NCBI RefSeq assembly: GCF_011299555.1
Contig: NZ_CP049857.1
Location: 372,001 to 436,000 of the forward strand
Direction of reading: 5' to 3'
Length of the DNA: 64,000 nucleotides
Source: Dysgonomonas sp. HDW5A
Lineage (GTDB): Bacteria; Bacteroidota; Bacteroidia; Bacteroidales; Dysgonomonadaceae
Shown here: in pieces, positions 6,884 through 56,062 of the stretch
Position numbering within the stretch: position 1 is the stretch's first letter
Layout of the letters: the number at the start of each line of letters is the position of its first letter
Made by a program: the position numbers and the translations under genes
Notes under the pieces: generated by a model
Database searches by the model: none
What the model saw: only the letters and a program-made list of their open reading frames with translations
What the model was told of the DNA's origin: nothing

Positions 6884-6887
6884 ACGT

Positions 6888-42172: not shown

Positions 42173-42727
42173 ATGGCAATTAATTTAACAAAAGGACAGC
42201 GAATTGATATCGGTCTTTCTAAGGTAGGTGTTGGACTTGGATGGGATCCTAACGAAAGTACAGGATTTGATTTTGACTTGGACGCATCGGCTTTTATGTT
42301 AGGTGATAATAAGAAACTTCCTGCTGACGAATTTTTCGTATTCTACAATAATCCTAAATCACCGGATGGTTCGGTTGAATCCTCGGGCGACGATTTAACA
42401 GGAGGTAATAGTGACGGTGATGACGAAACTCTAACTGTAGACTTAACCCGTGTGGATCCTAAAGTACAGGAAATAGTGTTTACGGTAACCATTCACGATT
42501 ACGAAACCCGCAAACAAAACTTCGGACAAGTACGTAATTCGTTTATTCGTATATACAATGCTCAGACTAATGAGGAAATTGCCAAATACGAATTGGATGA
42601 GGACTTCTCGATAGAAACAGCTGTGGAATTTGGTCGTTTATACAAACGCAACGGCGAATGGAAGTTCGAAGCTATGGGTATCGGATATAAAGGTGGCCTT
42701 GAATATTTCGTTAATAAATTTGCATAA
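42173..42727 (+). CDS. terD: TerD family protein, copy 1
   Basis: The 184-residue cytoplasmic protein is full length for the family. The calcium-binding TerD signature is complete: FDFDLDASAFMLGD (about 36-49), GGNSDGDDETL (about 81-91) and VTIHDYETRKQNFGQVRN, ending in YKRNGEWKFEAMGIGYKGGL. TerD proteins work in the Ter stress response (tellurite, colicin, phage, DNA damage), probably on the inner face of the membrane. It is the first gene of the cluster. It is paralogous to the next gene, with an almost identical 72-nt stretch near the 3' end. Confidence 0.93.
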   Translation: MAINLTKGQRIDIGLSKVGVGLGWDPNESTGFDFDLDASAFMLGDNKKLPADEFFVFYNNPKSPDGSVESSGDDLTGGNSDGDDETLTVDLTRVDPKVQEIVFTVTIHDYETRKQNFGQVRNSFIRIYNAQTNEEIAKYELDEDFSIETAVEFGRLYKRNGEWKFEAMGIGYKGGLEYFVNKFA

Positions 42728-42770
42728 ATACAGCAAGCCAGTAACAGTGAGCAGTTAACTTTAAACAAAC

Positions 42771-42815
42771 TGATAACTGACACCGGATAACTGTTAATTG
42801 ATAACTGATAACTGA
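42771..42815 (+). repeat. Short tandem GATAACTG repeats between terD copies
   Basis: GATAACTG occurs at 42772, 42786, 42800 and 42808, spaced 14, 14 and 8 bp, in a 96-bp gap between two terD genes. Confidence 0.6.
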
Positions 42816-42823
42816 TTATAATT

Positions 42824-43378
42824 ATGGCTATAAATTTAGAAAAAGGACAACGCACCGAGGTGAAATTGCCGAAATTCGTTGTAGGTCTTGGATGGGATAC
42901 CAATTCATCAAGTACAGGAGTCGATTTCGACTTAGATTGCTCGGTTTTTATCTTAGGTGATAATAAGAAGATTCTTTCTGACGAGTTTTTTGTATTCTAT
43001 AATAACCTTAAATCACCCGATGGTTCTGTAGAGCATACAGGCGACAATCTTACCGGTGAAGGGGATGGAGATGACGAAACTATAAAAATCGATTTGTCGA
43101 AAATAGATGCTAAGGCGACTGAAATATGTTTCATCGTAACGATTCATGAGGCAGAAAGCCGCAAACAAAATTTCGGACAAGTTCGTAATTCATTCGTCAG
43201 AATATACAATCCTGAAAATAACGAAGAGCTTCTGAAATACGAATTAGAGGAAGATTTTTCGATAGAAACAGCTGTGGAATTTGGTCGTTTATACAAACGC
43301 AATGGCGAATGGAAATTCGAAGCTGTGGGTGTCGGTCAAAAAGGAGGTTTGGCAGATTATTTACAGAAATATAGCTAA
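42824..43378 (+). CDS. terD: TerD family protein, copy 2
   Basis: The 184-residue protein has the motifs VDFDLDCSVFILGD, GEGDGDDETI and VTIHEAESRKQNFGQVRN, and the same C-terminal YKRNGEWKFEA. All calcium-ligand Asp residues are present. It is likely to act beside copy 1, perhaps as a hetero-oligomer. That is inference from tandem duplication. Confidence 0.93.
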   Translation: MAINLEKGQRTEVKLPKFVVGLGWDTNSSSTGVDFDLDCSVFILGDNKKILSDEFFVFYNNLKSPDGSVEHTGDNLTGEGDGDDETIKIDLSKIDAKATEICFIVTIHEAESRKQNFGQVRNSFVRIYNPENNEELLKYELEEDFSIETAVEFGRLYKRNGEWKFEAVGVGQKGGLADYLQKYS

Positions 43379-43486
43379 GGTCTCTAACCCAACTTATTAT
43401 TACTAACGAAACAGATTGTGTGTTTTAAGAAATTACACAATCGAAGCCTACAATAACTTATAAAATAACATTAATAAAATACAGCT

Positions 43487-44173
43487 ATGGCAATTAATTT
43501 ACAGAAAGGTCAACGTATAAATCTAGAGAAAAGTTCAGGAGCAAAACTGGTTCAGTTTTGTGTGGGTGTGAACTGGGGAGCAATCGAATATCAAGCTGAA
43601 GAAGGCGGTTTTCTTGGCTTCGGCAAAAAGACTGTAACCAAAAGCAAAGATGTAGACTTAGATTTGAGTTGTGTAATGTATGACGAAAATGGTAATTTGG
43701 TGGATCACCTGTATTCTCCATTATACAGACCCGAACTTCTTGCTCAATTCGGATTAAATGCCGGAAAGCTTGTTTCAATTACAGGAGCAATGCGTCACAC
43801 TGGTGATGATCTTGAAGGAGATAAAGGTGGAGACGATGGTTTGGATAACGAAATTATCACTGTAGACCTTTCTAAATTAGGTACTAATGTACACCGTATT
43901 TTCTTCTTTCTGAACAGTGTGGGCGAAGAAGATTTCTCTCAGGTTCCTTATGCGAAAATAAGAATGTACGAAGGTACCCCTGTCAAAGTTGATAGCGTAT
44001 ATGCTGAATATAATGTAGTTTCTGAACCTCAATACAGAGGTAAAAAAGCTCTTATTATGGGTGAACTTTATAAAAAAGGTGACGATTGGAAGTTCAATGC
44101 GATTGGTGATGCATTCGAAGATGTATTCCTTGGACAAACCATCCAACGTATCACGCAAAACTATGCTAAATAA
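43487..44173 (+). CDS. TerD family protein, longer variant
   Basis: The 228-residue protein has the TerD fold with an insertion near residues 30-55 (EEGGFLGFGKKTVTKSK). The Asp-rich motifs KDVDLDLSCVMYDENG and HTGDDLEGDKGGDDG are present. The end, GELYKKGDDWKFNAIGDAF, is the family C-terminus. This longer type resembles TerZ/TerX-like members. It is the third TerD paralogue in a row. It starts 108 bp after copy 2. Confidence 0.9.
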   Translation: MAINLQKGQRINLEKSSGAKLVQFCVGVNWGAIEYQAEEGGFLGFGKKTVTKSKDVDLDLSCVMYDENGNLVDHLYSPLYRPELLAQFGLNAGKLVSITGAMRHTGDDLEGDKGGDDGLDNEIITVDLSKLGTNVHRIFFFLNSVGEEDFSQVPYAKIRMYEGTPVKVDSVYAEYNVVSEPQYRGKKALIMGELYKKGDDWKFNAIGDAFEDVFLGQTIQRITQNYAK

Positions 44174-44197
44174 TTTTTAAGCATAATATATTCCTAT

Positions 44198-44287
44198 CCT
44201 TTTTGCTTTTTTGTAACTTTATCAAGATTACATTTGAGCAAAAAGGATTTTAAGGTCTAAGACCTTTTTGTTACTTTGGCAAGATTA
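44198..44287 (+). repeat. Direct repeat pair and hairpins between terD-3 and telA
   Basis: The 23-nt units at 44208-44230 and 44265-44287 differ at 3 positions and share TTTTTGT-ACTTT--CAAGATTA. Between them lies a small hairpin, aaggtc-taa-gacctt (44252-44266). A 9-bp arm pair, cctttttgc/gcaaaaagg (44198-44206, 44238-44246), overlaps the first unit. The TTTGTAACTTT word links it to the dispersed element at 9870 and 50574. Confidence 0.6.
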
Positions 44288-44320
44288 AATACAACAAATA
44301 GTTATAATTGAAAATACAAT

Positions 44321-45418
44321 ATGGATACTACTAATAATAACATCCCGACTCCATCTCTTCAAAGAATAGACAATCAAGGAAATATAAATCTGGAGAATCT
44401 CGATCAAAATGAAATAAGCAGGTTATCAGAATTAAATAAAAGCTTAGTAGTAACCGATGTAAACTCAGTTCTAAACTATGGAGTCGATTTACAATCGACA
44501 ATGGAAAAATACAGTAATGACTTTCTGAACTCGGTCAGAACATTTAATTCAGGTGAAGTTGGCACACATATAAGCGACCTTCTTACCGAACTGAATTATA
44601 TAGATGTAGACGAGTTGAATCAGAGTGGATTCAAAGCTTTTCTGAGTAAAGTTCCATTATTGAAGAATTTAGTTGTTAACGTAAAGAGAATATTCCAGAA
44701 ATACGACACTGTTATTTCGAATGTCGACAAGATATCAAATAAAATTAAAGCCGGTCGCATCAATTCATTGAAAGACAATACGGCTCTACAGACTATGTTC
44801 GACAACAATGTTGAATATATCAAACAAATAGAACAACTTATAATTGCAGGTCAATTGAAATTTCAGGAACTGCAAGTGAAATTGGCAGAGATGGAAGGTA
44901 ATCCTGCTAACTACAAAGATTATGAGATTGCCGATCTTAGAGAATATATCATGCGTCTCGACAAACGTCTTGCCGACATGAAAATCATTCGCTATGTAAT
45001 GATGCAATCGCTTGCACAAATACGTGTGGTTCAAAACAACAATACAGCCATAGCAGACAAAGCTCAATCGATTATTTCTACAACAATACCTGTTTGGAAA
45101 AATCAATTGACTATTGCCGTTGCGTTATACAGACAGAAAGCAAATGTGGAAATGCAACGTAAGGTAGCAGAAACCACTAACACTATATTAGAGAAGAATG
45201 CTGAACTACTTCGTCAAAACAGTATTGAGGTAGCTCGCGAAAATGAAAACACGGTAGTATCTATCGATACATTGAAAAAAACAACTCAATCGCTTATCAG
45301 CACATTAGACGAAGTGAAAAAGATTCACGAAGAAGGTATGCGTAACCGTCAGGTGTTAGATAAAGAATTGCAAACATTAGAAACAGAATTAAGAAAGAAC
45401 GTTCAAGGAATTCGTTAA
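44321..45418 (+). CDS. telA: TelA/KlaA family toxic-anion-resistance protein
   Basis: The 365-residue, mainly helical cytoplasmic protein has no leader. The TelA family pattern is visible in the middle: LADMKIIRYVMMQSLAQIRVVQNNN, then IISTTIPVWKNQLTIAVALYRQK. The length fits. TelA proteins occur in tellurite-resistance and Ter loci, and their biochemical role is not established. It lies between the TerD block and the unknown helical protein, with all genes in one direction. Confidence 0.92.
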   Translation: MDTTNNNIPTPSLQRIDNQGNINLENLDQNEISRLSELNKSLVVTDVNSVLNYGVDLQSTMEKYSNDFLNSVRTFNSGEVGTHISDLLTELNYIDVDELNQSGFKAFLSKVPLLKNLVVNVKRIFQKYDTVISNVDKISNKIKAGRINSLKDNTALQTMFDNNVEYIKQIEQLIIAGQLKFQELQVKLAEMEGNPANYKDYEIADLREYIMRLDKRLADMKIIRYVMMQSLAQIRVVQNNNTAIADKAQSIISTTIPVWKNQLTIAVALYRQKANVEMQRKVAETTNTILEKNAELLRQNSIEVARENENTVVSIDTLKKTTQSLISTLDEVKKIHEEGMRNRQVLDKELQTLETELRKNVQGIR

Positions 45419-45463
45419 GGCAACAAACCTTATTTTATTTCTTGGAAAGGACCCCATTTATAA

Positions 45464-46426
45464 ATGACCGATAACAGAACAGAGATATTAGATGCTTCGG
45501 ATAAAATAATTCAGAGATTATATGACCTCATTACTTTCTTTGAGGATCAGACAATCATGAAAATTTATTTGCAAAGTCAGGTCATTCATAAACTTTTTGA
45601 GGAAAACCCCGACATGGATATTAATAAGCTTGAATTGTACCATATTCAATTTACAAGCACACTTATCGACCTTCTGGATAAAATCAGAAAGAAGAATGAG
45701 CGCATTGTAAATAGTATGGAAAATGAGATTGAGCTAAATAATGATATGATTGGCAAACTCAGACAGGCTATTACTCAGGAGGGGGGATTTGAGGCTGAGA
45801 AGTTACAACAAGCTCAACGCATCACCAGGTCTATCTATAATTTGCATAAGGCATTATCATCTCAGTCTTCAGAATATCCTTATACCGATAATATTAATGC
45901 CTTCAGTATTAAATATTACAAGGATTACTTCTTTGATGCTGATCCTCAATTGTTAGATTCATTAACATCCTATAATCATTCGGACGCTTATAGAAACACA
46001 TTCGGGGTTATAAATAAAAAACTATTGACAGCTCTTGTAAAAGAAAGTTATAAAGTACAGTTTTGTTTCGGTATAAGAATCAATAATACATTGATGGAGA
46101 TTTATAAGATACAGAACGAGGAGAGTTACTTTTCGTTTCAACCCACTAGAAATAATTTTCTCCCTTGCGATATAAACGTATTCCCATACAAGGAATGGGA
46201 AAGCGAATCATCTAAGAAGGAACGATCGATAAAGGAACTTATGCAGAAAAATCTTCAGCTGGAAAGAGATATCAAATTCAATCTGAGACATATCGATTCT
46301 GATATTAATTTGCTTTTAGGCGAGAATCTGAAAAGGATAACTGAGCTTGATTTTCTGGCAGACCTAGAGAATATTGATATTCAAGCCAATACGCTTCGAA
46401 CGATGATCGAAACAAAAATGATATGA
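45464..46426 (+). CDS. Helical protein of unknown function in the Ter cluster
   Basis: The 320-residue protein has no leader or membrane segment. It is rich in charged heptad-like helices, with coiled-coil candidates at about 60-130 (LLDKIRKKNERIVNSMENEI) and 245-300 (SIKELMQKNLQLERDIKFN). I do not recognise a family. The gene starts 45 bp after telA, and its stop overlaps the transposase ATG (ATGA, 46423-46426). Its fixed place between TelA and the vWA array suggests a structural partner of TelA. That is inference. Confidence 0.75.
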   Translation: MTDNRTEILDASDKIIQRLYDLITFFEDQTIMKIYLQSQVIHKLFEENPDMDINKLELYHIQFTSTLIDLLDKIRKKNERIVNSMENEIELNNDMIGKLRQAITQEGGFEAEKLQQAQRITRSIYNLHKALSSQSSEYPYTDNINAFSIKYYKDYFFDADPQLLDSLTSYNHSDAYRNTFGVINKKLLTALVKESYKVQFCFGIRINNTLMEIYKIQNEESYFSFQPTRNNFLPCDINVFPYKEWESESSKKERSIKELMQKNLQLERDIKFNLRHIDSDINLLLGENLKRITELDFLADLENIDIQANTLRTMIETKMI

Positions 46427-46962
46427 CAACCGATACATTACCAAGCCGGCGAACAATTCGATTACAGGGATATGATTATTCCTCATCGGGAATGTATTTT
46501 GTTACCATATGTACACAAGATAGAATATGTTTATTTGGTGAGGTTATCGGAAAAACTGTAGGGGCTGGGCTCTGCCTTGCCCTCAATGATTATTATATTA
46601 AGTTATCTCAATATGGTGAGATTATCGAAGAACAATGGATATCATTGCCTAACCTTTTTCCTAATATTATTTTACATGAATATGTCATTATGCCCAACCA
46701 TTTTCATGCAATAATAGAAATAGATACATGGGCAGGGCAGAGCCCAGCCCCTACACTCGGCAACATAATAGGTTCGTTTAAATCTATTTCTACAAAAAAA
46801 TGTAATAAAATGGATAATATATCCGGACAAAAAATCTGGCAACGCAATTATTACGAACATATTATCAGAAACGAAAAATCATATAATAATATTACCGATT
46901 ATATAGCCAATAATCCTATAAATTGGCAATCGGACGATTACTATATAAATAAAACCATATGA
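46423..46962 (+). CDS. REP-associated tyrosine transposase (RAYT, Y1 HUH family)
   Basis: The 179-residue single-strand DNA nuclease or transposase is related to IS200/IS605 TnpA. The N-terminal pattern RRTIRLQGYDYSSSGMYFVTICTQ is a RAYT opening. The metal-binding HUH motif is PNHFH (91-95), and the conserved helix WQRNYYEHIIRNE (139-151) carries candidate catalytic Tyr residues. It looks intact. It overlaps both neighbours by ATGA, so it is translationally coupled inside the Ter cluster, which is unusual for a mobile gene. The coding sequence contains a REP-like inverted pair encoding VGAGLCLAL and WAGQSPAPT. Confidence 0.9.
   Translation: MTTDTLPSRRTIRLQGYDYSSSGMYFVTICTQDRICLFGEVIGKTVGAGLCLALNDYYIKLSQYGEIIEEQWISLPNLFPNIILHEYVIMPNHFHAIIEIDTWAGQSPAPTLGNIIGSFKSISTKKCNKMDNISGQKIWQRNYYEHIIRNEKSYNNITDYIANNPINWQSDDYYINKTI
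46558..46754. repeat. REP / inverse-REP pair inside the RAYT gene
   Basis: A 25-nt left arm (46558-46582) starts GTAGGGGCTGGGCTCTGCC. The right arm (46730-46754) is its reverse complement with one mismatch, 147 nt away. Each arm has the REP layout: GTAG followed by a hairpin of outer GGGC/GCCC and inner GGC-TCT-GCC. The GC content is far above the surroundings. Confidence 0.75.
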
Positions 46963-47600
46963 GACGACTTCCTGTATATTTGCTTCTGGATACTTCTGCC
47001 TCTATGAAAGGTCAGCCTATCGAAGCCTTAAGAAAAGGTATCGATACCATGATAAAGGCATTGCGTAAAAATCCACAAGCGATAGAAAGCGTATATATAA
47101 GTATTATTACATTCAGTAATACGGCACAGGTATTGGTACCATTAACTGATCTGGGATCATTTCAGATGAGTGAATTGCAAGCTACGGGACAAACTGCTCT
47201 TGGGGCTGCCCTTAGATTGGTTACAGACAGAATAAATTCGGAAATCAAAAAAAATACAATGGAAGAAAAAGGTGACTGGAAACCTATTGTATTTATTATG
47301 ACGGATGGAGTTCCGATTGATGACTGGAAAAAAGGAGCTGATTATTTTTCGACCTGTAAAACTGCGTATACTGTTGCTTGTGCAGCAGGAAGCCATGCTG
47401 ACACTTCTACATTGAAGCAAATAACCCCTCATGTTATCAGTCTAGAGAAAGCCGATGAAGACAGTATGTCTCGTTTTTTCCTGTGGATGTCATCTTCTAT
47501 CGGAACAACTTCGCTGAAAGTCGAAACAAATGGAGATACTCTTGGCATATCGAGCTTGGATGAACTGCCCCCTCCTCCACCCGATATCAATATTCTTTAA
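46959..47600 (+). CDS. TerY-like vWA domain protein 1
   Basis: The 213-residue cytoplasmic protein is a single von Willebrand A domain. The MIDAS is complete: DTSAS near residue 9, Thr in GQTALG, and Asp in MTDGVPIDD. It ends with a Pro-rich tail, LPPPPPDINIL, shared with the next two paralogues. TerY-type vWA proteins are adaptors that work with a PP2C phosphatase and a kinase, both found downstream. Its ATG overlaps the transposase stop (ATGA). Confidence 0.9.
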   Translation: MRRLPVYLLLDTSASMKGQPIEALRKGIDTMIKALRKNPQAIESVYISIITFSNTAQVLVPLTDLGSFQMSELQATGQTALGAALRLVTDRINSEIKKNTMEEKGDWKPIVFIMTDGVPIDDWKKGADYFSTCKTAYTVACAAGSHADTSTLKQITPHVISLEKADEDSMSRFFLWMSSSIGTTSLKVETNGDTLGISSLDELPPPPPDINIL

Positions 47601-47715
47601 AGTCACATATTTTTCTATATTGCTTTTGAAGATATAAAGCGGGGGTAGCTATCTTTTATAAAATATTGAAATAAATAGTTGAAATTACTTGAGACAAACA
47701 TAAAACCTAAATAAC

Positions 47716-48354
47716 ATGAGAAGATTACCTGTTTACTTAGTTTTAGATACATCGGGATCGATGCACGGTGAGCCTATTGAAGCGGTAAAGAATGGCGTAC
47801 AAGTTCTGATCTCAACCTTACGTCAAGACCCATACGCTTTAGAAACTGCTTATTTGAGTATAATCACTTTTGATTCTTCGGTAAAACAAATAGTTCCATT
47901 GACCGAATTGTCGATGTTTCAGATGCCTGACCTTAAAGCTAACGGAACAACAGTTTTAGGAGAAGCTTTAGGCGTATTGTCTAAAACAATAGATAAAGAA
48001 GTTGAAAAAACAACAGTCAAACAAAAAGGTGATTGGAAACCTCTCGTATTTATTATGACAGATGGTGCTCCAACCGACGACTGGCAAAAAGGACTGAACG
48101 AATTCAAAAAGCAGAAATATGGTATGGTTATAGCTTGTGCTGCCGGTCAGAATGCAAACACTTCCATACTAAAACAAATTACAGAAACAGTAGTACAATT
48201 AGATAATACCGATAGTGCAACCATTAAAGCATTTTTCAAATGGGTATCAGCATCTATAAGCTTCGGTAGTCAGAAAATAGAATCAGGCGGACAGGAAATC
48301 TCAGGTTTGAGCGAATTGCCTCCTCCACCTCCTGAAGTAAATATTGTATTATAA
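47716..48354 (+). CDS. TerY-like vWA domain protein 2
   Basis: The 212-residue protein opens MRRLPVYLVLDTSGSMHGEP with the MIDAS DTSGS. Thr is in NGTTVLG and Asp in MTDGAPTDD. The tail is LPPPPPEVNIVL. It is a tandem duplicate of the preceding and following genes. A 115-bp gap separates it from copy 1. Confidence 0.9.
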   Translation: MRRLPVYLVLDTSGSMHGEPIEAVKNGVQVLISTLRQDPYALETAYLSIITFDSSVKQIVPLTELSMFQMPDLKANGTTVLGEALGVLSKTIDKEVEKTTVKQKGDWKPLVFIMTDGAPTDDWQKGLNEFKKQKYGMVIACAAGQNANTSILKQITETVVQLDNTDSATIKAFFKWVSASISFGSQKIESGGQEISGLSELPPPPPEVNIVL

Positions 48355-48384
48355 TAGTTACACTAACATAAGATATAAATAGAT

Positions 48385-49020
48385 ATGAGAAGATTACCTG
48401 TATATTTATTATTAGATACATCGGGATCGATGCGTGGTGAACCCATCGAGTCGGTAAAAGTAGGGCTGGAATCTATGGTTTCGAGCCTTAGACAAGATCC
48501 TTTTGCTCTTGAATCGGTTTTTATGAGCATCATTACTTTCGACAGAGAAGTAAAGCAAATACTTCCTCTAACCGAGTTGGAAAATCTGCAACTACCCGAA
48601 ATAGTTACACCGGAGTCGGGACCAACACATCTGGGTGAGGCTCTTGAAATGCTATGCAAAAAAGTTGATGCGGAAGTAAAACTCAGCACTTCGGACGAAA
48701 AAGGTGACTGGATGCCTCTACTATTTATTATGACAGATGGTAAGCCTTCCGATTTGCAGAAATACAACCAGATGATACCTGAAGTAAAGAAACGCAATTT
48801 TGCAAGTATCATAGCTTGTGCTGCCGGAGTAAAAGCAGATACACAGCCATTATTGGCTCTTACCAATCAGGTATATTCTTTAGATACAACCGACAGTTCA
48901 ACATTCCGTCAGTTTTTCAAATGGGTATCGGCTTCGGTAAGTGTTGGAAACAGAAGCGTTGGAACAAGTAATGACATAGCATTGCCACCTCCACCTCCCG
49001 AAATACATACTGTTATTTAA
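48385..49020 (+). CDS. TerY-like vWA domain protein 3
   Basis: The 211-residue protein opens MRRLPVYLLLDTSGSMRGEP with the MIDAS DTSGS. Thr is in SGPTHLGEA and Asp in MTDGKPSD. The tail is LPPPPPEIHTVI. It starts 30 bp after copy 2. Its nucleotide sequence near the start is very close to that of copy 2, which indicates a fairly recent duplication or conversion. Confidence 0.9.
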   Translation: MRRLPVYLLLDTSGSMRGEPIESVKVGLESMVSSLRQDPFALESVFMSIITFDREVKQILPLTELENLQLPEIVTPESGPTHLGEALEMLCKKVDAEVKLSTSDEKGDWMPLLFIMTDGKPSDLQKYNQMIPEVKKRNFASIIACAAGVKADTQPLLALTNQVYSLDTTDSSTFRQFFKWVSASVSVGNRSVGTSNDIALPPPPPEIHTVI

Positions 49021-49045
49021 TTATTTTTTCAAACCAAGCACACCT

Positions 49046-50110
49046 ATGAGACGACTACCTATATACTTTTTAATTGATGTTTCCGAATCGATGATCGGAG
49101 AACCTCTTCAGCATGTACAATCGGGTATGGAAGCCATTATAAAAGAGCTTCGCACCGATCCGTATGCATTGGAAACCGTTTGTATTTCCATTATTGCTTT
49201 TGCGGGCAAAGCTAAAAAGCTCAATTCAATGGAGGAATTGTATAATTTCTATCCTCCTAAATTACCGATTGGAGGTGGTACCTCGCTTGGTAACGCAATG
49301 AGTTTTCTGATGAATGATATGGATCTTTCGATAAGAAAAACGACATTGGAAGCCAAAGGTGACTGGAAGCCCATTGTATTTTTATTTACAGATGGAGCAC
49401 CGACCGATTTCACGGATACAGCCTTTAGCAAATGGAACGAGAAGTTTCGAAAAGGAGCCAACTTAATAGCAATCTCCATAGGTGATAATATGGATACCAG
49501 AATATTGACTCAGATTACGGATAATGTTCTTCAATTAAAAGATACAGACGAAGTTTCATTTAAGGAATTCTTTAAATGGGTTACTGCCTCTATCAAAACA
49601 ACCAGTATGAGTATCAGCGATCTGAGCAGCGATGACTTAAAGCTTGCTCCTTTCTCGGATGATATACTCAACAAAATAGAGATGGAGATGAATGCTCCCA
49701 TAAAGGTAGATGAAAATTTTGCCGTTATATTAGGTAAATGTCAAAAGACATCACAACCTTATCTTCTGAAATATCAAAAAAGATTAGCCTCTAATGATTT
49801 TTCTCATCTAACCAGATTGGGAGGTCATAAATTTAAATTTGTAGGAGCTTACCCTATTGATAATTCGTACTTCGATATGGTAGACGGTTATGCAAATGGC
49901 AGCTTAAGCGGAAGCAAAATAAGTACGGATGAGCTGATTGGATTTCCATCTTGCCCTTGTTGCAGTAATCATATTGCCATAGGGCTTTGTATGTGCGGAA
50001 GTATCATGTGTGTAGGTGATGAACCGATGAGCCATTGTCCATGGTGTGGAATTCAGGTTTCATTTAAAGGCTCAGACGGAGGAATGGATATAGGACGCAC
50101 CAGAGGTTAA
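49046..50110 (+). CDS. TerY-like vWA protein 4 with C-terminal zinc-ribbon (TerY-C) domain
   Basis: The 354-residue protein has an N-terminal vWA domain (about 1-200) with the MIDAS variant DVSES, Thr in GGTSLGNA and Asp in FTDGAPTD. A linker and a C-terminal domain follow, with CPCC (about 303-306), CMCG, a further Cys and CPWCG (about 332-336). This is a zinc-ribbon-like pattern matching the TerY-C domain. Unlike copies 1-3 it lacks the PPPPP tail. It is probably the regulatory member of the array. Confidence 0.88.
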   Translation: MRRLPIYFLIDVSESMIGEPLQHVQSGMEAIIKELRTDPYALETVCISIIAFAGKAKKLNSMEELYNFYPPKLPIGGGTSLGNAMSFLMNDMDLSIRKTTLEAKGDWKPIVFLFTDGAPTDFTDTAFSKWNEKFRKGANLIAISIGDNMDTRILTQITDNVLQLKDTDEVSFKEFFKWVTASIKTTSMSISDLSSDDLKLAPFSDDILNKIEMEMNAPIKVDENFAVILGKCQKTSQPYLLKYQKRLASNDFSHLTRLGGHKFKFVGAYPIDNSYFDMVDGYANGSLSGSKISTDELIGFPSCPCCSNHIAIGLCMCGSIMCVGDEPMSHCPWCGIQVSFKGSDGGMDIGRTRG

Positions 50111-50139
50111 GAAATATTTAATAAAAGCAAACAGCAGAA

Positions 50140-50565
50140 ATGAGATTACAAATAATATTTACATCAATACTTACAATAATATTATCAAGTTGTTCAACCT
50201 ATCAAATTCCACTTGATAGTTTTGAAGAACAATTCAGAGACAATGATCCTGGACAATTAAATAGGGTAAAAACAAACACTCCGGCTTGGGGTACAATAGA
50301 ATATCAAACAAATAAAGCAGATGTCATTTTCTGTGTAGATAAAAATAATAAAGCTAAAATCTTAAAAAAGAGTCCTTCTCTAGAAATAAGAATTACAGAA
50401 AAAAGTAAAAAGAAAACAGTATTTTATGCAGATCAGGTTTTTGTCAGAGATTCCCTTATTTGTGGAGAAAGATCAAGAATAATAAACTCAAATAAGTGTA
50501 TTCCATTAAAAAATGTCAAACTGACCGAAATACAGGATGGACATAAAAATTATAAATATAAGTAA
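50140..50565 (+). CDS. Small lipoprotein of unknown function in the Ter cluster
   Basis: The 141-residue protein has a lipoprotein leader with lipobox LSSC (Cys18). The mature part is about 120 residues, basic and beta-rich, with no family motif I know. It lies 30 bp after the vWA-4 gene and before the repeat-bearing gap. If it belongs to the cluster, it would be the cluster's only envelope lipoprotein. Confidence 0.65.
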   Translation: MRLQIIFTSILTIILSSCSTYQIPLDSFEEQFRDNDPGQLNRVKTNTPAWGTIEYQTNKADVIFCVDKNNKAKILKKSPSLEIRITEKSKKKTVFYADQVFVRDSLICGERSRIINSNKCIPLKNVKLTEIQDGHKNYKYK

Positions 50566-50573
50566 ATAGTTAA

Positions 50574-50785
50574 ATTCGGCTTTTATCTATTGAAAATAAG
50601 TATAACTCGTTGATATAAATAAAAAAAAGAAAGCATCTAAAAAGTGTTACTTTTGTAATGTTTTCAACCTTTAAAACCTATATATCAACAATTTACAAAA
50701 ATTACAAAAACAGACATAATTAATCGAATTGTAATCTGGTTTTGTAACTTTATTGTTTAGTTTTTGTAAGCTTCGTAACCTCTCT
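50574..50785 (+). repeat. Intergenic TTTGTAAC-rich element, copy B
   Basis: It begins with ggcttttatctattg and an A-rich segment, then aagtgttacttttgtaat at 50642. GTAAC/GTAAT/GTAAG words follow to about 50780. The order of parts is the same as in copy A at 9870-10091. It lies between the lipoprotein and PP2C genes. Confidence 0.5.
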
Positions 50786-50810
50786 ATATAAATATTTTAG
50801 ATGATTTACT

Positions 50811-52352
50811 ATGGATTTTGAAAAGATGATTTCTTATCTGAATATTCAAACTGAATATAAAGAGAAACTCCCTGAGTTCTTCGAACAGGAAGATGTCAGA
50901 GAATTTCTTTTACTGAAATGGAAAGAATATGTAAACAACCTGTCCTTAGAATCAGAAGATGAGGTGGTTGATAGCGATGAGCCGAATTTAAATAACACCG
51001 ATAATGATATAAATATGGCAACTATACCCAATATACCCGAGGACGAAGAAACTAAAGCTCGTCAAACAGTTAATCCCTACATTGATTCTAAAGACAATGA
51101 CCTGGACCGTAAACTGAAAGCTAAGCATATACAGCTTCAAAACGGAAAAGTGAACCAACCTTACCAATGTCTGTTCGACATTACCGTTTTTGGAATAGCA
51201 GATATCGGAGATTTTGAATTGATCGGTTTAGACGAAATCGGATTAAAATTCAATCCATCAACTGATCTGATCGAAGGTATACCCAATAAGGCAGGGGATC
51301 ATCGTATCACCCTTAAATGCAAACGCAACGAATGGAGCGAAGGCGATCCCATATTCGAACGTACGATCACTCTTATTATTAATCCCGATCCTCGTTCTTT
51401 ATGGAATAACATCCCTACTCCGGCTAATATTGAATACTATAAACCCGATTCGGATTGCAAATACATAAAGGTAGAAAAGACCAAAGGGATTTTCGGCTTA
51501 GGCAAGAAGGAACAAAAAGATATAGTTGCTGCAAGTCAACGTGGACGCTCTCATGCACATGAAGGTACTCCTCGAGATGATGATTTCAGCATCTTACATC
51601 AGCAAAATGAAGGATGGTACATTATGACCGTTGCCGATGGTGCAGGCTCTGCCAAGTATTCGCGACAAGGGTCTTTCATTGCTTGCCAAACGGTATCCGA
51701 TATATGCAACACTCAATTTGCTAAGTACAATAAAGAGGTTGATGAGCTTATCAAGGATTTCGAAAAAGACAGCTCTGATGTGAAGCGTAAGAAATTAGGT
51801 GATGCTCTTTACAACATTATAGGGTCTGCCGTATTCAAAGCTTATAAGAATATTGAAAAAGAAGCAGAGGAAAAAGAAAACCAGATAAAGGATTATGCTA
51901 CTACCTTATTGGTGACGGTTTCTAAAAAATTTAAGTTCGGATGGTTTGTTGCTGCTTTTTGGGTAGGCGATGGCGGTATTGGAATCTATAATAAGGATAC
52001 CCAATACCTGAAAATTATGGGTGAACCCGATGGAGGAGAATTTGCAGGTCAAACCCGTTTTCTTACGATGTCGGAAATAATGCAACCTACCGAGATTTAC
52101 AAACGCTTACGTTTCGAAATTGTAGAAGACTTCACGGCCTTGGTACTTATGTCTGACGGCATAACCGATCCCAAATTTGAGACTGATTCGAACTTGAATC
52201 GAATCGAAAAATGGAATAAGCTTTGGGAAGACATTACATCAACTGTTGATTTGACCGATGATAATGTTGATTCGGCACAACAATTATTACAGTGGCTCGA
52301 TTTTTGGTCGCAAGGTAACCACGATGACAGAACGATAGCAATACTTTATTGA
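50811..52352 (+). CDS. PP2C-type Ser/Thr protein phosphatase of the TerY-P triad
   Basis: The 513-residue protein has an acidic N-terminal region (about 1-90). An Ig-like segment of about 95-185 residues (QNGKVNQPY ... IEGIPNKAGDHRI) resembles a cell-surface-protein Ig fold, although no leader is present. The PP2C catalytic domain (about 235-513) carries RDDDFSI (about 254-260), VADGAGSAKYS (about 274-284), GDGGIG and LMSDGITDP for metal binding. It dephosphorylates targets of the adjacent kinase. The kinase ATG comes 2 bp after its stop. Confidence 0.9.
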   Translation: MDFEKMISYLNIQTEYKEKLPEFFEQEDVREFLLLKWKEYVNNLSLESEDEVVDSDEPNLNNTDNDINMATIPNIPEDEETKARQTVNPYIDSKDNDLDRKLKAKHIQLQNGKVNQPYQCLFDITVFGIADIGDFELIGLDEIGLKFNPSTDLIEGIPNKAGDHRITLKCKRNEWSEGDPIFERTITLIINPDPRSLWNNIPTPANIEYYKPDSDCKYIKVEKTKGIFGLGKKEQKDIVAASQRGRSHAHEGTPRDDDFSILHQQNEGWYIMTVADGAGSAKYSRQGSFIACQTVSDICNTQFAKYNKEVDELIKDFEKDSSDVKRKKLGDALYNIIGSAVFKAYKNIEKEAEEKENQIKDYATTLLVTVSKKFKFGWFVAAFWVGDGGIGIYNKDTQYLKIMGEPDGGEFAGQTRFLTMSEIMQPTEIYKRLRFEIVEDFTALVLMSDGITDPKFETDSNLNRIEKWNKLWEDITSTVDLTDDNVDSAQQLLQWLDFWSQGNHDDRTIAILY

Positions 52353-52354
52353 TA

Positions 52355-53854
52355 ATGAGTGATAAGATTATAACTATAAAAGCAACTGACGGATCAACGG
52401 TTCAGTTTGTGGATAAGATAATAGGTTCGGGAGGAATGAAGGATGTATACTTCAGCCCCGATAAAACATATGTAGTTGGTTTTTTCAGAGACAAGCAGGA
52501 TTTTAATGCTAAAGACCGACTTCAAAATATAACAGGTATATATCGCGAACGCATATTTCAACAAGAAGGTGGCGACTACTGGCAAGACCTATATTGTTGG
52601 CCGACTAAAATAGTTGAACATAATGGTAAATTAGGCTTGGTATGCCCAACTTATCAGCCTTGCTTCTTTTTTAAATACGGATCGGTGAATGATGACTTCC
52701 TTGGAATAAAAGGTCGTGAGAAAGAAGGCAAATGGTTTGCTTCGGCAAAAAATCAAAATCGATTTCTGGCTCCCGAGGAAAGAGGAGACTGGTTTAAATA
52801 CCTGCAAATATGTATTCGCATCAGCCGTGCCGTAAAACGTATGCACGCAGCAGGTCTGGCTCACTCCGATCTTTCATACAAAAACGTATTGGTAGATCCG
52901 ACTTCGGGCAGAGCTGCCATTATTGATATTGACGGACTTGTTGTTCCCGGAAAATTCCCCCCCGATGTATTGGGGACACCCGACTTTATAGCTCCCGAAG
53001 TAATTGCTACAAAACATCTGAAAATAGATGATCCTAATCGTAAATTGCCAAGCATTACTACCGACAGGCATGCTCTGGCAGTGATGATATATATGTATTT
53101 ATTATACCGTCATCCACTGCGAGGTGGAAAAGTTCACGATTTGGATTCGGGCAGAGATGAAGAACTGTCGATGGGAGAAAAAGCATTGTTTATTGAGCAT
53201 CCTACCGATGCATCCAACAGGGTTAAATCGGCTCAATTACAAGCAAGCCAATTACCTCAGGCTGATCCGGCAAAGATACCTTATACGGTCTGCGGTCCTT
53301 ATCTGAAAGAATTATTTGATAAGGCATTTATAGACGGACTACACAATCCCTTTGTTCGCCCAACAGCCAATGAATGGGAAGATGCATTATTAAAAACGGT
53401 TGATCTTTTACAACCTTGTCAAAACTCAAGATGCTGGCATAAGTGGTTTGTTTTTGATAATAGTACAAAGCCCAAATGTCCGTTCTGCGGAACTGATTAT
53501 AAAGGACAATTACCGGTATTAAACCTATATTCGTCACGTCACGAAGGAACATTTACCCCCGACAATTATCGGTTGATGGTTTATAATAATCAGTACCTTT
53601 ATATGTGGCATGCTAATAGGAATATTTGGCCTAATGAAAAATTAACCGACGATCAGAAAAAGCCTGTTGCGTATTTTGTTTTCCATCAGAATAAATGGCT
53701 GCTTATCAACCAGCGATTGAAGGATCTGGAAGATAAAACCGAAGGGAAAAAGATTGGAATAGGTGAAGCGGTAGAATTAACCGACAATAAACAAATACTC
53801 CTTTCTAAAGAAAATGGAGGTCGGCTAATTGTGGTTCAAATGTTAAATAATTGA
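52355..53854 (+). CDS. TerY-P triad protein kinase with C-terminal zinc-finger
   Basis: The start is the ATG at 52355. An in-frame TTG 6 bp earlier overlaps the phosphatase stop. The 499-residue protein has a G-loop GSGGMKDVYF (24-33), a catalytic loop HSDLSYKN (170-177; HxDLxxxN) and a metal site DIDG (191-194; the DFG equivalent). The position expected to hold the beta-3 Lys reads VVGFFRDK, so the ATP-contact Lys is moved or absent. After the kinase domain are Cys pairs (CQNSRC ... CPFCG, about 356-380) and a short C-terminal module. The stop overlaps the HAD ATG by 1 bp. Confidence 0.88.
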   Translation: MSDKIITIKATDGSTVQFVDKIIGSGGMKDVYFSPDKTYVVGFFRDKQDFNAKDRLQNITGIYRERIFQQEGGDYWQDLYCWPTKIVEHNGKLGLVCPTYQPCFFFKYGSVNDDFLGIKGREKEGKWFASAKNQNRFLAPEERGDWFKYLQICIRISRAVKRMHAAGLAHSDLSYKNVLVDPTSGRAAIIDIDGLVVPGKFPPDVLGTPDFIAPEVIATKHLKIDDPNRKLPSITTDRHALAVMIYMYLLYRHPLRGGKVHDLDSGRDEELSMGEKALFIEHPTDASNRVKSAQLQASQLPQADPAKIPYTVCGPYLKELFDKAFIDGLHNPFVRPTANEWEDALLKTVDLLQPCQNSRCWHKWFVFDNSTKPKCPFCGTDYKGQLPVLNLYSSRHEGTFTPDNYRLMVYNNQYLYMWHANRNIWPNEKLTDDQKKPVAYFVFHQNKWLLINQRLKDLEDKTEGKKIGIGEAVELTDNKQILLSKENGGRLIVVQMLNN

Positions 53855-54531
53855 TGAAAATAAAAAATATTTCATTTGATCTTTGGATGACTCTTATAAG
53901 ATCACATCCTGAGTTCAAATTAAAACGTGCCGAATTAATAGCCGATACTTTTAATATAAAAAATATCTCCCCAAAGGAGATCGATTCTTTTATACGCTCG
54001 GTAGATAATGTTTTTGATCGTTACAATATGATTAGCGGAAAAAAACTATCTGCGAATAAGATGTATCAGAAACTTTTAGAAAAGTTAGTTCCTAAGGAAA
54101 CTTCTGTTACGTTGGACATAGCTATTAGCCTGCGTAAAGAAGCTGACGATCTCTTCGGGCAATATCAGCCTGTCTTTTTGAATGAAAATATCCCTCAAAT
54201 ACTCTCTCAGCTAAAAGAAGAGGGGTATGTACTGAATCTGTCGAGCAATACAGGCTTTATTGAAGGAGAAACACTTCGAAAAACATTGGCAAATATGGAT
54301 ATTCTTGAGTACTTCGATTTTCTAATATTTTCGGACGAGATAAATGCTTCTAAGCCTTCCTCGCATTTCTTCCAACATGTTTATGACCACATAAACGTTC
54401 CTAAAAATGCAGTTTTACACATTGGGGATAATCCTAAAGCAGATTATCAAGGGGCAAAGAACTTCGGTTTTAATGCTTTATTAATTACAGATCCTAATTA
54501 TACGATTAATGATATCAGAACAAAATTATAA
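53854..54531 (+). CDS. HAD-superfamily protein with non-canonical motif I
   Basis: From the ATG at 53854 the protein has 225 residues. The HAD motifs are FDLWMTL (Asp9, with Trp11 in place of the usual second Asp), SSNTG, a Lys in NASKPSS and HIGDNPKADYQGA. The helical cap is of the C1 type. The missing second Asp is seen in haloacid-dehalogenase-like members and may mean weak or different phosphatase chemistry. It is coupled to the kinase and to the PRTase gene, which overlaps its end by 23 bp. Confidence 0.85.
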   Translation: MKIKNISFDLWMTLIRSHPEFKLKRAELIADTFNIKNISPKEIDSFIRSVDNVFDRYNMISGKKLSANKMYQKLLEKLVPKETSVTLDIAISLRKEADDLFGQYQPVFLNENIPQILSQLKEEGYVLNLSSNTGFIEGETLRKTLANMDILEYFDFLIFSDEINASKPSSHFFQHVYDHINVPKNAVLHIGDNPKADYQGAKNFGFNALLITDPNYTINDIRTKL

Positions 54532-55345
54532 AGGTACTATCACCCACTTTAGTGGCTTTCTTATTGATAACGAAAATGAGTTTGGATTCTCAGCAGTCGA
54601 TTACTCTAAATTCAAATACGGAGCAATTAATATTGCAAGAGAATTCGGGTATCTTCTTGCTGATCGTTTCATTGAAAATTGCTTCAAAGATCATTATAAC
54701 GGAAAACAGATTGTTGTACTGCCTAGTGCATACTCATACATTCCTACTGCTTCATTCTTTATGAAAGTATTTTTCGTTGAAAAACTCAATTTATTTTTAT
54801 ATAAAAATGGATATCCTATTGTTCAGGAGACTAAAATAAACAGGACTGTTACCTATCGTGAAGATTATGGCGAGATGTCGGCACAAGATCGGTACAACCT
54901 AATCAGTGGAGATAGTTTTCATGTAGATAAAGCCTATGTCGAAGATAAGCAGTTATTGTTTCTGGATGATATAAAAATAACCGGGACACATGAACGAATT
55001 ATCATTAAAATGCTCAATGATGCACAGATCAGTAATGATTGTTACATGTTATATTTTGCAGAACTAATAAATTCGAATATTTCTCCAAAATTCGAAAACT
55101 ATTTGAACAACTATTTTGTTAAAGATTTGGAGAAAGTGAACGACATCATCAAAAATGAAAATTTCATTTTCAACACCAGAGTTGTTAAATACATATTAAA
55201 TGCAGATCCAGCGGAATTCAAAGCATTCATTAGCAATCAAACGACTGATTTCAAAAGAGATATACTCTTTCAGGCGATAGGTAATGAATATTTTAAATTT
55301 GAAAACTACTTGGAGAATATTGATATGTTAATGAAGCTCACCTAA
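54509..55345 (+). CDS. Phosphoribosyltransferase-like protein of the Ter cluster
   Basis: The 278-residue protein has a type I PRTase core. The PRPP-binding loop is LLFLDDIKITGTHE (149-162), and an upstream beta-strand reads IVVLPSAYSY. A C-terminal helical extension follows (about 200-278). PRTases next to HAD proteins in Ter loci have been proposed to make a nucleoside-like metabolite. I do not see the ATP-grasp partner here. The start overlaps the HAD gene by 23 bp, and no nearer ATG would keep the fold. Confidence 0.75.
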   Translation: MISEQNYKGTITHFSGFLIDNENEFGFSAVDYSKFKYGAINIAREFGYLLADRFIENCFKDHYNGKQIVVLPSAYSYIPTASFFMKVFFVEKLNLFLYKNGYPIVQETKINRTVTYREDYGEMSAQDRYNLISGDSFHVDKAYVEDKQLLFLDDIKITGTHERIIIKMLNDAQISNDCYMLYFAELINSNISPKFENYLNNYFVKDLEKVNDIIKNENFIFNTRVVKYILNADPAEFKAFISNQTTDFKRDILFQAIGNEYFKFENYLENIDMLMKLT

Positions 55346-55513: not shown

Positions 55514-55795
55514 ATGGCAAGCAGAACGTCCTATAATTACCAGAAGGAGTTATTAGTTAAATTAAAAGAAACATTAGAAGTGTTTAGAGAAGACATGTCG
55601 AATGTAGCTAGAAATTATAAGAATTCAGTACAAAATCTTCATGATCAGGAAGGCTTAATGGATGAAACTTATGATGAATACTACATCAACTACTTAAACC
55701 CTACGGTTGAAATTCTGAATAGTATATTAGAACGTATCGATACTGAAGATGTAGCTTTTATTGAAAAAGAAATCAATTTCTTATCTAGCCGTTAA
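55514..55795 (+). CDS. Small helical protein of unknown function
   Basis: The 93-residue protein has no leader. It appears as two long amphipathic helices split near DQEGLMDETYDE, so it is probably a helical hairpin that oligomerises. There is no WxG or other known motif. It is the first gene of a four-gene set with HU-like and LysM-like partners, 12 bp before the HU-like gene. Confidence 0.7.
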   Translation: MASRTSYNYQKELLVKLKETLEVFREDMSNVARNYKNSVQNLHDQEGLMDETYDEYYINYLNPTVEILNSILERIDTEDVAFIEKEINFLSSR

Positions 55796-55807
55796 TAGAC
55801 TTAAATT

Positions 55808-56062
55808 ATGATGGACGAATCCAAATTGTGTGATAATATTAGAAATAGCTTAAAAGCAAAGGGAATAGATCTCTCTGAGAGGGATATCAGTAATCTCTAT
55901 GCTTCGACCATGTCAAATATGTATACCATACTTGACGAGGGTAAGACTATAGACATTTCTGATTTCGGCTCATTTTGGAGAAAAAAAACAGAACCGGCAT
56001 CGGTTACTTTTTTTAAACCTATAGAGAGGCTTCTTGAGCGTATAAATACCAGAAAGAAATGA
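55808..56062 (+). CDS. HU/IHF-like DNA-binding protein
   Basis: The 84-residue protein has HU-like helices at the start and the family's beta-saddle KTIDISDFGSFWRKK, then VTFFKPIERLLERIN, which match the HU consensus I-x-GFG-F and F-P-S-L-x-x-x-IN. The DNA-gripping arm seems short. It is the free member next to a membrane-anchored HU protein. The next gene overlaps its stop (ATGA). Confidence 0.75.
   Translation: MMDESKLCDNIRNSLKAKGIDLSERDISNLYASTMSNMYTILDEGKTIDISDFGSFWRKKTEPASVTFFKPIERLLERINTRKK

What the first reader, a model, noticed from the sequence alone, without database searches (positions are those of the whole stretch)
42173..55345. Extended Ter stress-response cluster with complete TerY-P triad and HAD/PRTase module
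Seen directly: 14 co-oriented genes with short gaps or overlaps, namely three TerD-family, TelA, an unknown helical protein, RAYT, four vWA, a lipoprotein, PP2C, kinase, HAD and PRTase. Known: TerD/TelA/TerY clusters and the vWA-PP2C-kinase triad were described by comparative genomics and proposed to sense metals or phage and to make a nucleoside-like metabolite. Inferred: this version is unusual in having four vWA copies and no TerC, TerB or ATP-grasp gene in the window. It is the best candidate here for a little-studied phosphorylation-controlled defence or stress system.
Basis: partly seen in the sequence, partly recalled or inferred. Interest (0 to 1): 0.72.

Follow-up and report, generated by a model that had tools for sequence, protein, structure and literature searches.

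The report
Two-module Ter stress-signalling gene cluster
A Bacteroidota bacterium carries a run of fifteen genes that joins two stress-response modules, one built around protein phosphorylation and one that probably makes a small nucleotide-like signal, together with an unnamed partner protein and a lodged transposase-like gene; the kind of system is known, but how it works is still untested.

Summary
In detail: 15 (not 14) co-oriented genes, 42173-55345, all families confirmed by Pfam except the unknown protein and the lipoprotein. The genome is a Dysgonomonas relative. Comparison splits the run into two separable modules. (1) TerY-P: vWA2-vWA3-vWA/TerY_C-PP2C-kinase match one to one the corresponding genes of plasmid R478 (71/56/42/40/66% identity), so three vWA genes are standard; the fourth was found only in the window and two close relatives. 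(2) HAD-PRTase-TelA-unknown 320-aa protein plus TerD, which stands alone, with TerC, in other genomes of the phylum. The unknown protein and the PRTase occur in the same 15 of 395 phylum genomes (strong hits), but a Hymenobacter plasmid has HAD-PRTase without it. The HAD has an invariant Trp where classical HAD phosphatases carry the second Asp (22 of 22). The RAYT is a guest: two lineages entered at two sites, and relatives sit as tightly in unrelated operons. The downstream HU/LysM genes are independent. Best reading: a phosphorylation-switched stress or phage response coupled to a nucleotide-like signal, not a tellurite-resistance operon. The kind is published; the variant, the partner family and the odd HAD look new. 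No function was testable here.

The parts
42173..42727 (+). TerD family protein 1
   Evidence: Pfam TerD 2.6e-73; PDB relatives 3ibz, 2kxt
42824..43378 (+). TerD family protein 2
   Evidence: Pfam TerD 2.9e-73
43487..44173 (+). TerD family protein 3 (longer, divergent)
   Evidence: Pfam TerD 1.8e-28
44202..44236 (+). possible Bacteroidota-type promoter (TTTG-N-TANNTTTG) before TelA; no better than chance
   Evidence: 3 matches in window, 3.75 expected by chance
44321..45418 (+). TelA (module B)
   Evidence: Pfam TelA 2.5e-95
45464..46426 (+). unnamed 320-aa protein ('unk320'), probably mostly helical, partner of the HAD-PRTase-TelA module (module B)
   Evidence: no convincing family or PDB relative; same 15 of 395 genomes as PRTase_3
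46423..46962 (+). RAYT (REP-associated tyrosine transposase), guest gene, overlaps both neighbours by 4 bp
   Evidence: Pfam Y1_Tnp 2e-7; NCBIfam REP_Tyr_transpos 5.2e-20 but 71.8 bits, under the 80 cut-off; tree; junctions
46558..46576 (+). GTAG-tagged REP-like unit inside the RAYT gene, first of an inverted pair
   Evidence: genome 418558-418576
46736..46754 (-). GTAG-tagged REP-like unit, second of the inverted pair
   Evidence: genome 418736-418754
46959..47600 (+). vWA1: extra TerY-like vWA, only in window, L014, L017 among loci mapped
   Evidence: Pfam VWA 1e-12; distribution; dN/dS 0.04
47716..48354 (+). vWA2 (71% to the first vWA of the R478 block, TerY3 by recall) (module A)
48385..49020 (+). 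vWA3 (56% to the second vWA of the R478 block, TerY2 by recall) (module A)
49046..50110 (+). vWA4 with C-terminal TerY_C metal-binding domain (42% to the R478 TerY-C protein) (module A)
   Evidence: Pfam TerY_C 8.9e-41
50140..50565 (+). small lipoprotein (LSSC lipobox by eye), only in the window among loci mapped
   Evidence: no Pfam or NCBIfam hit; no match in relatives
50811..52352 (+). PP2C phosphatase with long N-terminal extension (module A)
   Evidence: Pfam PP2C_2 1e-42 at residues 244-496; 40% to R478 over residues 143-513
52349..53854 (+). Ser/Thr-type kinase with C-terminal zinc-ribbon-like cysteines (by eye) (module A)
   Evidence: Pfam Pkinase 1.1e-9; 66% to R478 kinase
53851..54531 (+). 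HAD-fold hydrolase with motif I FDLW instead of DxD (module B)
   Evidence: Pfam HAD_2 9.2e-17; 22 of 22 proteins compared keep D-L-W
54509..55345 (+). PRTase_3 (ComF-like phosphoribosyltransferase), PRPP loop DDIKITG intact (module B)
   Evidence: Pfam PRTase_3 8.2e-79

Best explanation
A two-module Ter/TerY-P stress-signalling system. Module A (vWA2, vWA3, vWA4-TerY_C, PP2C, kinase; vWA1 is a lineage-specific extra copy) sets the phosphorylation state of client proteins: the kinase and phosphatase oppose each other and the vWA proteins, through their metal-dependent (MIDAS) site, act as adaptors that pick clients; TerY_C and the kinase's zinc-ribbon-like tail bind metal. Module B (HAD, PRTase_3, TelA, unk320) makes or remodels a PRPP-derived nucleotide-like signal, with TelA and unk320 as helical, probably membrane-side scaffold or effector proteins. 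The TerD proteins accompany both modules and probably sense Ca2+ or the signal, linking the two. The output is a change of membrane transport under stress or phage attack. Shown: gene content, intact motifs, conserved order, co-occurrence of the modules, purifying selection. Inferred: adaptor role, signal, targets, output. Not shown: co-transcription or any phenotype.
For: Families. Module A matches the R478 block one to one; of 2340 plasmid records with a kinase match, 2315 have it at 60-80% identity. Modules co-occur: 9 of the 10 phylum genomes with TerY_C also have module B, which is in 15 of 395 (P 8e-14 counting genomes; 5e-6 counting genera, 4 of 5; relatedness only partly removed). Six of the nine hold both in one locus. 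unk320 and PRTase_3 in the same 15 of 395. MIDAS DxSxS in all four window vWA proteins. PRPP loop kept in 22 of 22 PRTases. TerC beside module B in 9 of 9 stand-alone loci. A P-type cation ATPase (L018, L019, L036, L037), a Na/Ca exchanger (L044) or TerC (L040-L043, L045) follows the cluster in 10 loci of relatives. Triads act against phage in other hosts (passages).
Against: The modules are separable: 3 of 9 genomes with both hold them apart, 6 have only module B, 1 has only TerY_C. In a congener an inversion moved HAD-PRTase about 8 kb from the kinase onto the other strand (L015, L120). The Hymenobacter plasmid has HAD-PRTase and a vWA-vWA-PP2C-kinase block without TelA or unk320, and its two vWA proteins are short, without room for TerY_C. 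No transporter adjoins the cluster in the window or L014-L017; the ATPase homologue (71%) and TerC lie elsewhere. In L036 the vWA3 protein has lost the MIDAS Asp. The HAD lacks the second motif-I Asp, against a plain phosphatase. No expression or phenotype data.
Confidence: 0.6

Rival explanations
1. It is primarily an anti-phage TerY-P system; module B and TerD are accessory and the phosphorylation switch itself stops phage growth.
For: TerY-P triads act against T7-like phages (commentary passage) and Autographiviridae in P. aeruginosa (passages). The Hymenobacter plasmid copy lies about 8 kb from a SIR2-Piwi pair.
Against: In the genus the cluster sits at one chromosomal place: a TPP-enzyme gene before it in 5 of 5 genomes, hisS (by eye) after it in 4 of 5, with no visible defence island. 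The stand-alone anti-phage kinases are said to carry an OB-fold, whereas other TerY-P versions have a zinc ribbon (PMC11090510 passage); the window kinase looks zinc-ribbon type by eye. PADLOC-DB, given 10 of the proteins, returns only weak kinase-domain hits and one for TelA at 0.007.
Confidence: 0.25
2. It is a Ca2+/Mn2+ homeostasis controller: TerD senses Ca2+ and the phosphorylation switch regulates cation exporters.
For: Neighbours in relatives: P-type cation ATPase (L018, L019, L036, L037), Na/Ca exchanger (L044), TerC (L040-L043, L045 and 9 stand-alone module B loci). TerD Ca2+ binding is recalled, not seen in a call.
Against: No transporter adjoins the cluster in the window or in L014-L017. 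The vWA array and the PRTase are not needed for simple homeostasis.
Confidence: 0.15
3. It is a tellurite or toxic-anion resistance operon.
For: TerD and TelA family names; the R478 block lies beside terZ-terC-terD genes on the plasmid.
Against: In Klebsiella an intact terZ-F operon is needed for tellurite resistance, and terZ-F in trans suffices in E. coli (passages); the window cluster has neither TerC nor a recognisable TerB.
Confidence: 0.08
4. The RAYT is a working DNA-processing part of the system rather than a guest.
For: Four of the five RAYT matches in the seven cluster-bearing family genomes lie inside the Ter cluster; the fifth is weak and partial. HUH and Tyr-region motifs kept in all four; 4-bp overlaps with both neighbours in the window.
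Against: Absent from three of seven family clusters; two lineages at two positions; 6 of 14 RAYT loci elsewhere sit as tightly between co-directional genes, and 12 of 14 lie at three recurring sites in unrelated gene pairs; no RAYT hit in the fetched clusters outside the family.
Confidence: 0.07

Closest known systems
vWA-TerD-vWA-TerY_C-PP2C-kinase block of IncHI2 plasmid R478 (NC_005211; gene names TerY3-TerX-TerY2-TerY1 are recalled, the record gives domain names)
   Same: vWA, vWA, TerY_C, PP2C and kinase in the same order on one strand; 71/56/42/40/66% identity.
   Different: R478 has a TerD-like gene between the first two vWA genes and, nearby, a different biosynthetic set (a PRTase with no detectable similarity here, HpcH/HpaI aldolase, StiP) and terZ-terC-terD genes; no TelA or unk320 match in the 24 kb compared.
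Stand-alone HAD-PRTase_3-TelA-unk320-TerD-TerC module of other genomes of the phylum (L121-L129)
   Same: Same families; HAD-PRTase adjacent and TelA-unk320 adjacent in 9 of 9.
   Different: No TerY-P triad in the locus; TerC present in 9 of 9; HAD-PRTase lie upstream of TelA, whereas in the window they lie at the 3' end.
TerY-P anti-phage system (Gao et al. 2020, not read; seen through passages of a commentary)
   Same: vWA, PP2C, kinase triad.
   Different: Here several vWA genes, a TerY_C domain, a zinc-ribbon-like kinase tail, and a second module attached.
CoCoNuT systems type II/III-A with TerY-P (PMC11090510, passages)
   Same: TerY-P triad; vWA duplication with genes placed between vWA copies.
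   Different: No McrB-type GTPase, helicase or HEPN family among the cluster proteins.
TnpA_REP (RAYT) subclass 2.4 (PMC6006769, passages)
   Same: NHFH, WQ and YIANNP motifs; REP units inside the gene; Bacteroidetes.
   Different: Lodged in a Ter cluster with 4-bp overlaps on both sides.

Membership tests
TerY-P triad | TerY-like vWA protein | tested here: met
   Four VWA proteins; 71/56/42% to the three R478 vWA proteins
TerY-P triad | PP2C-type phosphatase next to it | tested here: met
   PP2C_2 1e-42
TerY-P triad | Ser/Thr kinase with C-terminal zinc ribbon or OB-fold | tested here: inconclusive
   Kinase domain 1.1e-9, 66% to R478 kinase over nearly its length; zinc-ribbon cysteines only by eye in the translation
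TerY-P triad | anti-phage activity | not testable with these tools
   needs plaque assays
terZABCDEF tellurite-resistance operon | TerC and TerB in the operon | tested here: not met
   Neither among the 19 cluster and downstream proteins scanned; TerC lies at C1:3720233; TerB not searched genome-wide
Ter biosynthetic module | PRTase plus HAD | tested here: met
   PRTase_3 8.2e-79, HAD_2 9.2e-17
Ter biosynthetic module | ATP-grasp or aldolase partner | tested here: inconclusive
   None among the 19 cluster and downstream proteins or 20 other window proteins; 6 of the 25 ORFs, the genes after 57455 and the rest of the genome were not scanned
HAD phosphatase (classical) | DxD motif I with second Asp | tested here: not met
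   D-L-W in 22 of 22; role of the second Asp is recalled
CoCoNuT type II/III-A | McrB GTPase / CnuH helicase / HEPN nuclease core | tested here: not met
   no such family among the cluster proteins
RAYT (TnpA_REP subclass 2.4) | HUH, WQ, YIxNNP motifs and REP inserted in the gene | tested here: met
   definition from PMC6006769 passages; NCBIfam model scores below its cut-off

The most novel reading that the evidence does not exclude
Module B is an unrecognised signal-making system in its own right: a PRTase_3 and a HAD that has lost the usual acid/base Asp (so it either cleaves a bond other than a phosphate ester or holds a long-lived aspartyl-phosphate) make a PRPP-derived signal that is read by TelA and the unnamed 320-aa family, and the TerY-P switch is a separate control unit that several lineages have attached to it, with the vWA genes as sockets beside which lineage-specific, often envelope-type proteins are plugged in.
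Probability: 0.15. Interest if true: 0.65.

Novelty: new variant of a known kind. Interest (0 to 1): 0.42.

Why it matters
Close relatives of the kinase are on 2340 of 72,556 plasmid records, mostly of enterobacteria, yet the published texts seen here leave the product of the Ter biosynthetic genes and their link to the rest of the locus as a prediction or unclear (passages of PMC8115787, and PMC7824862). Showing that the two halves exist apart and together, that a nameless protein travels with the PRTase, and that the HAD is atypical turns a vague cluster into two testable units. [quoted passage not shown]

Tried and rejected
Structure of unk320: AlphaFold2 with the three sequences allowed (window, L011, L012) gave mean pLDDT 45.1, so no fold search was made. 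Searches of unk320 against Pfam (12 members), NCBIfam and the PDB gave nothing convincing; profile comparison with TelA and 11 R478 proteins gave nothing. No unk320 in plasmids or phages by single-sequence tblastn or in viral contigs. The Bacteroidota promoter motif is no more frequent than chance, and sigma-70-like sites were 71 against 61.9 expected, terminator-like sites 13 against 8.3; none is used as evidence of operon structure. A RAYT role in the system was considered and rejected after the control loci. Small proteins in L036 and L044 that looked TerB-like, and one in L019 that looked TerD-like, have no Pfam match at 0.001, so they are not named so. The single genome-contig scan used one protein and found only two close relatives; wider distribution comes from the genome search. 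The HU/LysM genes after the PRTase were considered as part and rejected: in G090 the HULysM relative lies on contig C1 and the TerY_C gene on C14. Of the 395 phylum genomes, 2 weak partial unk320 hits and 3 weak sub-cut-off PRTase_3 hits were dropped before counting. L048 (cut by the contig end), L039 (3 kb contig), and L049 and L050 (only distant TerY_C matches) were not counted as complete clusters; the sub-cut-off TerY_C hit in G195 was not fetched. PMC7159879 and PMC12839542 were looked at by passages and not used; all papers cited were seen as listings and passages only, none read whole.


Full report
What is there. The window lies at G000:C1:372001-436000 of a 4.30 Mb single-contig genome whose nearest named relatives for the fourth vWA protein are Dysgonomonas sp. 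HGC4 and D. alginatilytica at 92 and 91%. Pfam confirms three TerD, TelA, a Y1 transposase, four VWA (the last with TerY_C), PP2C_2, a protein kinase, a HAD and PRTase_3. The 320-aa protein at 45464-46426 ('unk320') and the 141-aa lipoprotein at 50140-50565 match no family convincingly. The three TerD genes are the only TerD matches in the genome.

Conservation. TerY_C occurs in 7 of 101 genomes of the family, and in 5 of 6 of the genus, own included; the sixth is 62% complete. Mapping the window's proteins on the six family relatives gives the order TerD-TerD-TerD-TelA-unk320-vWA2-vWA3-vWA4-PP2C-kinase-HAD-PRTase in L014, L016, L017, L018 and L019, with extra genes between. In L015 the part up to the kinase is the same, but HAD-PRTase, together with the downstream h93-HU-LysM genes, have been moved by an inversion to about 8 kb away on the other strand. 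Thirteen genes compared with L017 and L014 show dN/dS of 0.008 to 0.051 wherever dS could be estimated; against the more distant L016 only two values were obtained, 0.020 and 0.098; dS is often above 1.

Two modules. In 395 genomes drawn from the phylum, TerY_C is in 10. Strong unk320 matches are in 15 (two weak partial matches dropped) and PRTase_3 above its cut-off is in 15 (three weak ones dropped). These are the same 15 genomes. The two genes lie within 3 kb of each other in 14 of the 15 and about 8 kb apart in the window. Nine genomes have both TerY_C and the unk320/PRTase_3 module, six only the module, one only TerY_C. The overlap is far above chance (P 8e-14 by genomes; 5e-6 by genera, 4 of 5 TerY_C genera); counting genera removes relatedness only in part. 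In six of the nine the two lie in one locus; in G697 they are 1.9 Mb apart on one contig, and in G750 and G762 on different contigs. Nine loci where the module stands without the triad were fetched (L121-L129; six from genomes without TerY_C, three from genomes where it is elsewhere). Six read HAD-PRTase-TerD-TelA-unk320-TerD-TerC, two HAD-PRTase-TerD-TerD-TelA-unk320-TerC, one TerD-TerD-HAD-PRTase-TelA-unk320-TerC. The TerC gene was confirmed by Pfam in four of the nine and by 88-97% identity to those in the other five. In clusters with both modules, HAD-PRTase lie near the 5' end in L040-L043 and L045 and at the 3' end in the window's family. A counter-example to a strict link is a plasmid of Hymenobacter monticola (NZ_CP094537): HAD and PRTase diverge from TerD x3-vWA-vWA-PP2C-kinase-DUF475, with no TelA and no unk320 by profile search, and with two short vWA proteins only.

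Module A is the R478 block. On plasmid R478 the order is vWA-TerD family-vWA-TerY_C protein-PP2C-kinase (the names TerY3, TerX, TerY2, TerY1 are recalled). Window vWA2, vWA3, vWA4, PP2C and kinase match these at 71, 56, 42, 40 and 66%. The kinase has matches on 2340 plasmid records, 2315 of them at 60-80% identity, mostly Klebsiella, Escherichia, Salmonella and Enterobacter. So three vWA genes are the standard set. vWA1, 53% to vWA2, is in the window, L014 and L017 only, among loci mapped. The MIDAS pattern DxSxS is present in all four window proteins; of the vWA proteins listed only vWA3 of L036 has lost it. The PRTase, by contrast, finds only 17 plasmid records, 15 of them Rhizobium, and no similarity to the R478 PRTase was detected.

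The HAD. In 22 of 22 HAD proteins from these loci, including the Hymenobacter one, motif I reads D-L-W, while motif II (S-N-T), the motif III Lys and motif IV (G-D-N...D) are kept. From general knowledge, the second Asp of DxD is the acid/base of HAD phosphatases, and HAD enzymes without it include dehalogenases and phosphonatases. The closest solved relative is a probable phosphoserine phosphatase (2om6); the printed alignments mostly do not cover motif I. A published text calls the Ter HAD a phosphoesterase (PMC7824862 passage); this branch may not be one.

The RAYT. Within the seven cluster-bearing family genomes the RAYT profile finds five matches, four full-length ones inside the Ter cluster and one weak partial one elsewhere. 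The window, L016 and L019 copies, all between unk320 and the first vWA, form one clade (99/97); the L014 copy, between vWA3 and vWA4, belongs to another lineage. The site without RAYT is seen in L014 and L017. In the window the RAYT overlaps both neighbours by 4 bp, in L016 the upstream one and in L014 the downstream one. As a control I looked at 14 RAYT loci outside Ter clusters (of 18 fetched for the tree): in 6 of 14 both neighbours are co-directional and within 70 bp, and in 12 of 14 at least one side is within 70 bp. Twelve of the 14 lie at three recurring sites: aminotransferase/DAHP synthase (5), MoxR-type ATPase with an 86-aa gene (4), Mur ligase with a 243-aa gene (3). Tight lodging at a few operon sites is therefore this transposase's habit, not a Ter feature, although within cluster-bearing genomes the Ter cluster is where it is. 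The inverted GTAG REP-like pair inside the gene, with two further near-copies in the genome, matches the published description of subclass 2.4, where REPs are inserted in the gene (PMC6006769 passages).

Accessory genes. Extra genes (ORFs of 60 aa or more) lie mostly next to vWA genes. Over 18 Bacteroidota clusters with vWA, PP2C and kinase, R478 and the Hymenobacter plasmid (20 loci, read by hand), a non-vWA insert stands directly before the first vWA in 7, between vWA2 and vWA3 in 4, between vWA3 and vWA4 in 7, between vWA4 and PP2C in 1, and between PP2C and kinase in 1 doubtful case (a 62-aa ORF in L015). They include a SUKH-family lipoprotein (L014), a bPH_2 protein (L036), a YGGT-like protein below its cut-off (L036) and the TerD-like gene of R478. 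Many of these loci are close relatives, so no test is offered. Cation transporters follow the cluster in 10 relatives: P-type ATPase in L018, L019, L036, L037, Na/Ca exchanger in L044, TerC in L040-L043 and L045. The window, L014, L015, L016 and L017 lack them there; a homologue of the ATPase (71%) lies at C1:475118 and the only TerC at C1:3720233.

Boundaries. The 55514-57455 genes (a 93-aa protein, two HU-like proteins, LysM-like membrane proteins, the last two by eye) follow in the genus, but in G090 the HULysM relative lies on contig C1 and the TerY_C gene on C14, so they are not part of the system. Upstream is a TPP enzyme on the other strand, downstream hisS by eye.

Function. Published anchors, all seen as passages: TerY-P triads act against T7-like phages (commentary) and against Autographiviridae in P. 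aeruginosa with survival of most cells; in Klebsiella an intact ter operon is needed for tellurite resistance and terZ-F in trans suffices in E. coli, which implies that the terXYW side is not required; the PRTase and HAD are proposed to make a nucleotide-like signal read by TerB/TerD, with TelA and a vWA protein in sub-membrane structures. The window cluster lacks TerC and a recognisable TerB, so tellurite resistance is unlikely. The best reading is a phosphorylation-switched stress or phage response joined to a nucleotide-like signal module. Each mechanistic step beyond gene content and motifs is inference.

Novelty. The kind is known: the 2012 study that defined it is not held, and only its title was seen in reference lists; it may already show a similar Bacteroidota arrangement. 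In the listings and passages of the searches made I did not see the stand-alone HAD-PRTase_3-TelA-unk320-TerC module, the unk320 family or the DLW HAD described; that is a limited search. Hence 'new variant of a known kind', with moderate interest.

Noticed in passing
window 55514-57455: Four genes after the PRTase: a 93-aa protein (91-99% identical in L014-L017 and L120), an HU-like protein, an HU-like protein with a membrane segment and LysM-like tail (by eye), and a second membrane/LysM-like protein; a DNA-binding fold tied to a cell-wall-binding tail. Independent of the Ter cluster.
   Followed up: partly
window 46558-46754: Inverted pair of GTAG REP-like units inside the RAYT coding region; two further near-copies in the genome (C1:3379656, C1:3619137), neither inside an ORF of 60 aa or more.
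   Followed up: partly
L015 and L120 (G031 contig C9): An inversion in a congener separates HAD-PRTase (with the HU/LysM genes) from the kinase, a natural break of the run.
   Followed up: yes
window 2274-7505: Sel1-repeat protein (867 aa), a divergent Hsp90/HATPase protein (601 aa) and a DUF4253 protein in a row; unusual neighbours, perhaps a small conflict or chaperone locus.
   Followed up: no
L132 (NZ_CP094537, 67592-92833): Plasmid-borne Ter/triad-like cluster of Hymenobacter monticola lying near umuD/Y-family polymerase and a SIR2-Piwi pair.
   Followed up: partly
L055-L068: In the family, 12 of 14 RAYT genes outside Ter clusters lie at three recurring sites (aminotransferase/DAHP synthase; MoxR ATPase; Mur ligase), often within a few bases of a neighbour.
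   Followed up: partly
L014 7008-7661: A SUKH-family lipoprotein (Pfam SMI1_KNR4 5.7e-26) lies between vWA2 and vWA3 of the D. alginatilytica cluster.
   Followed up: no
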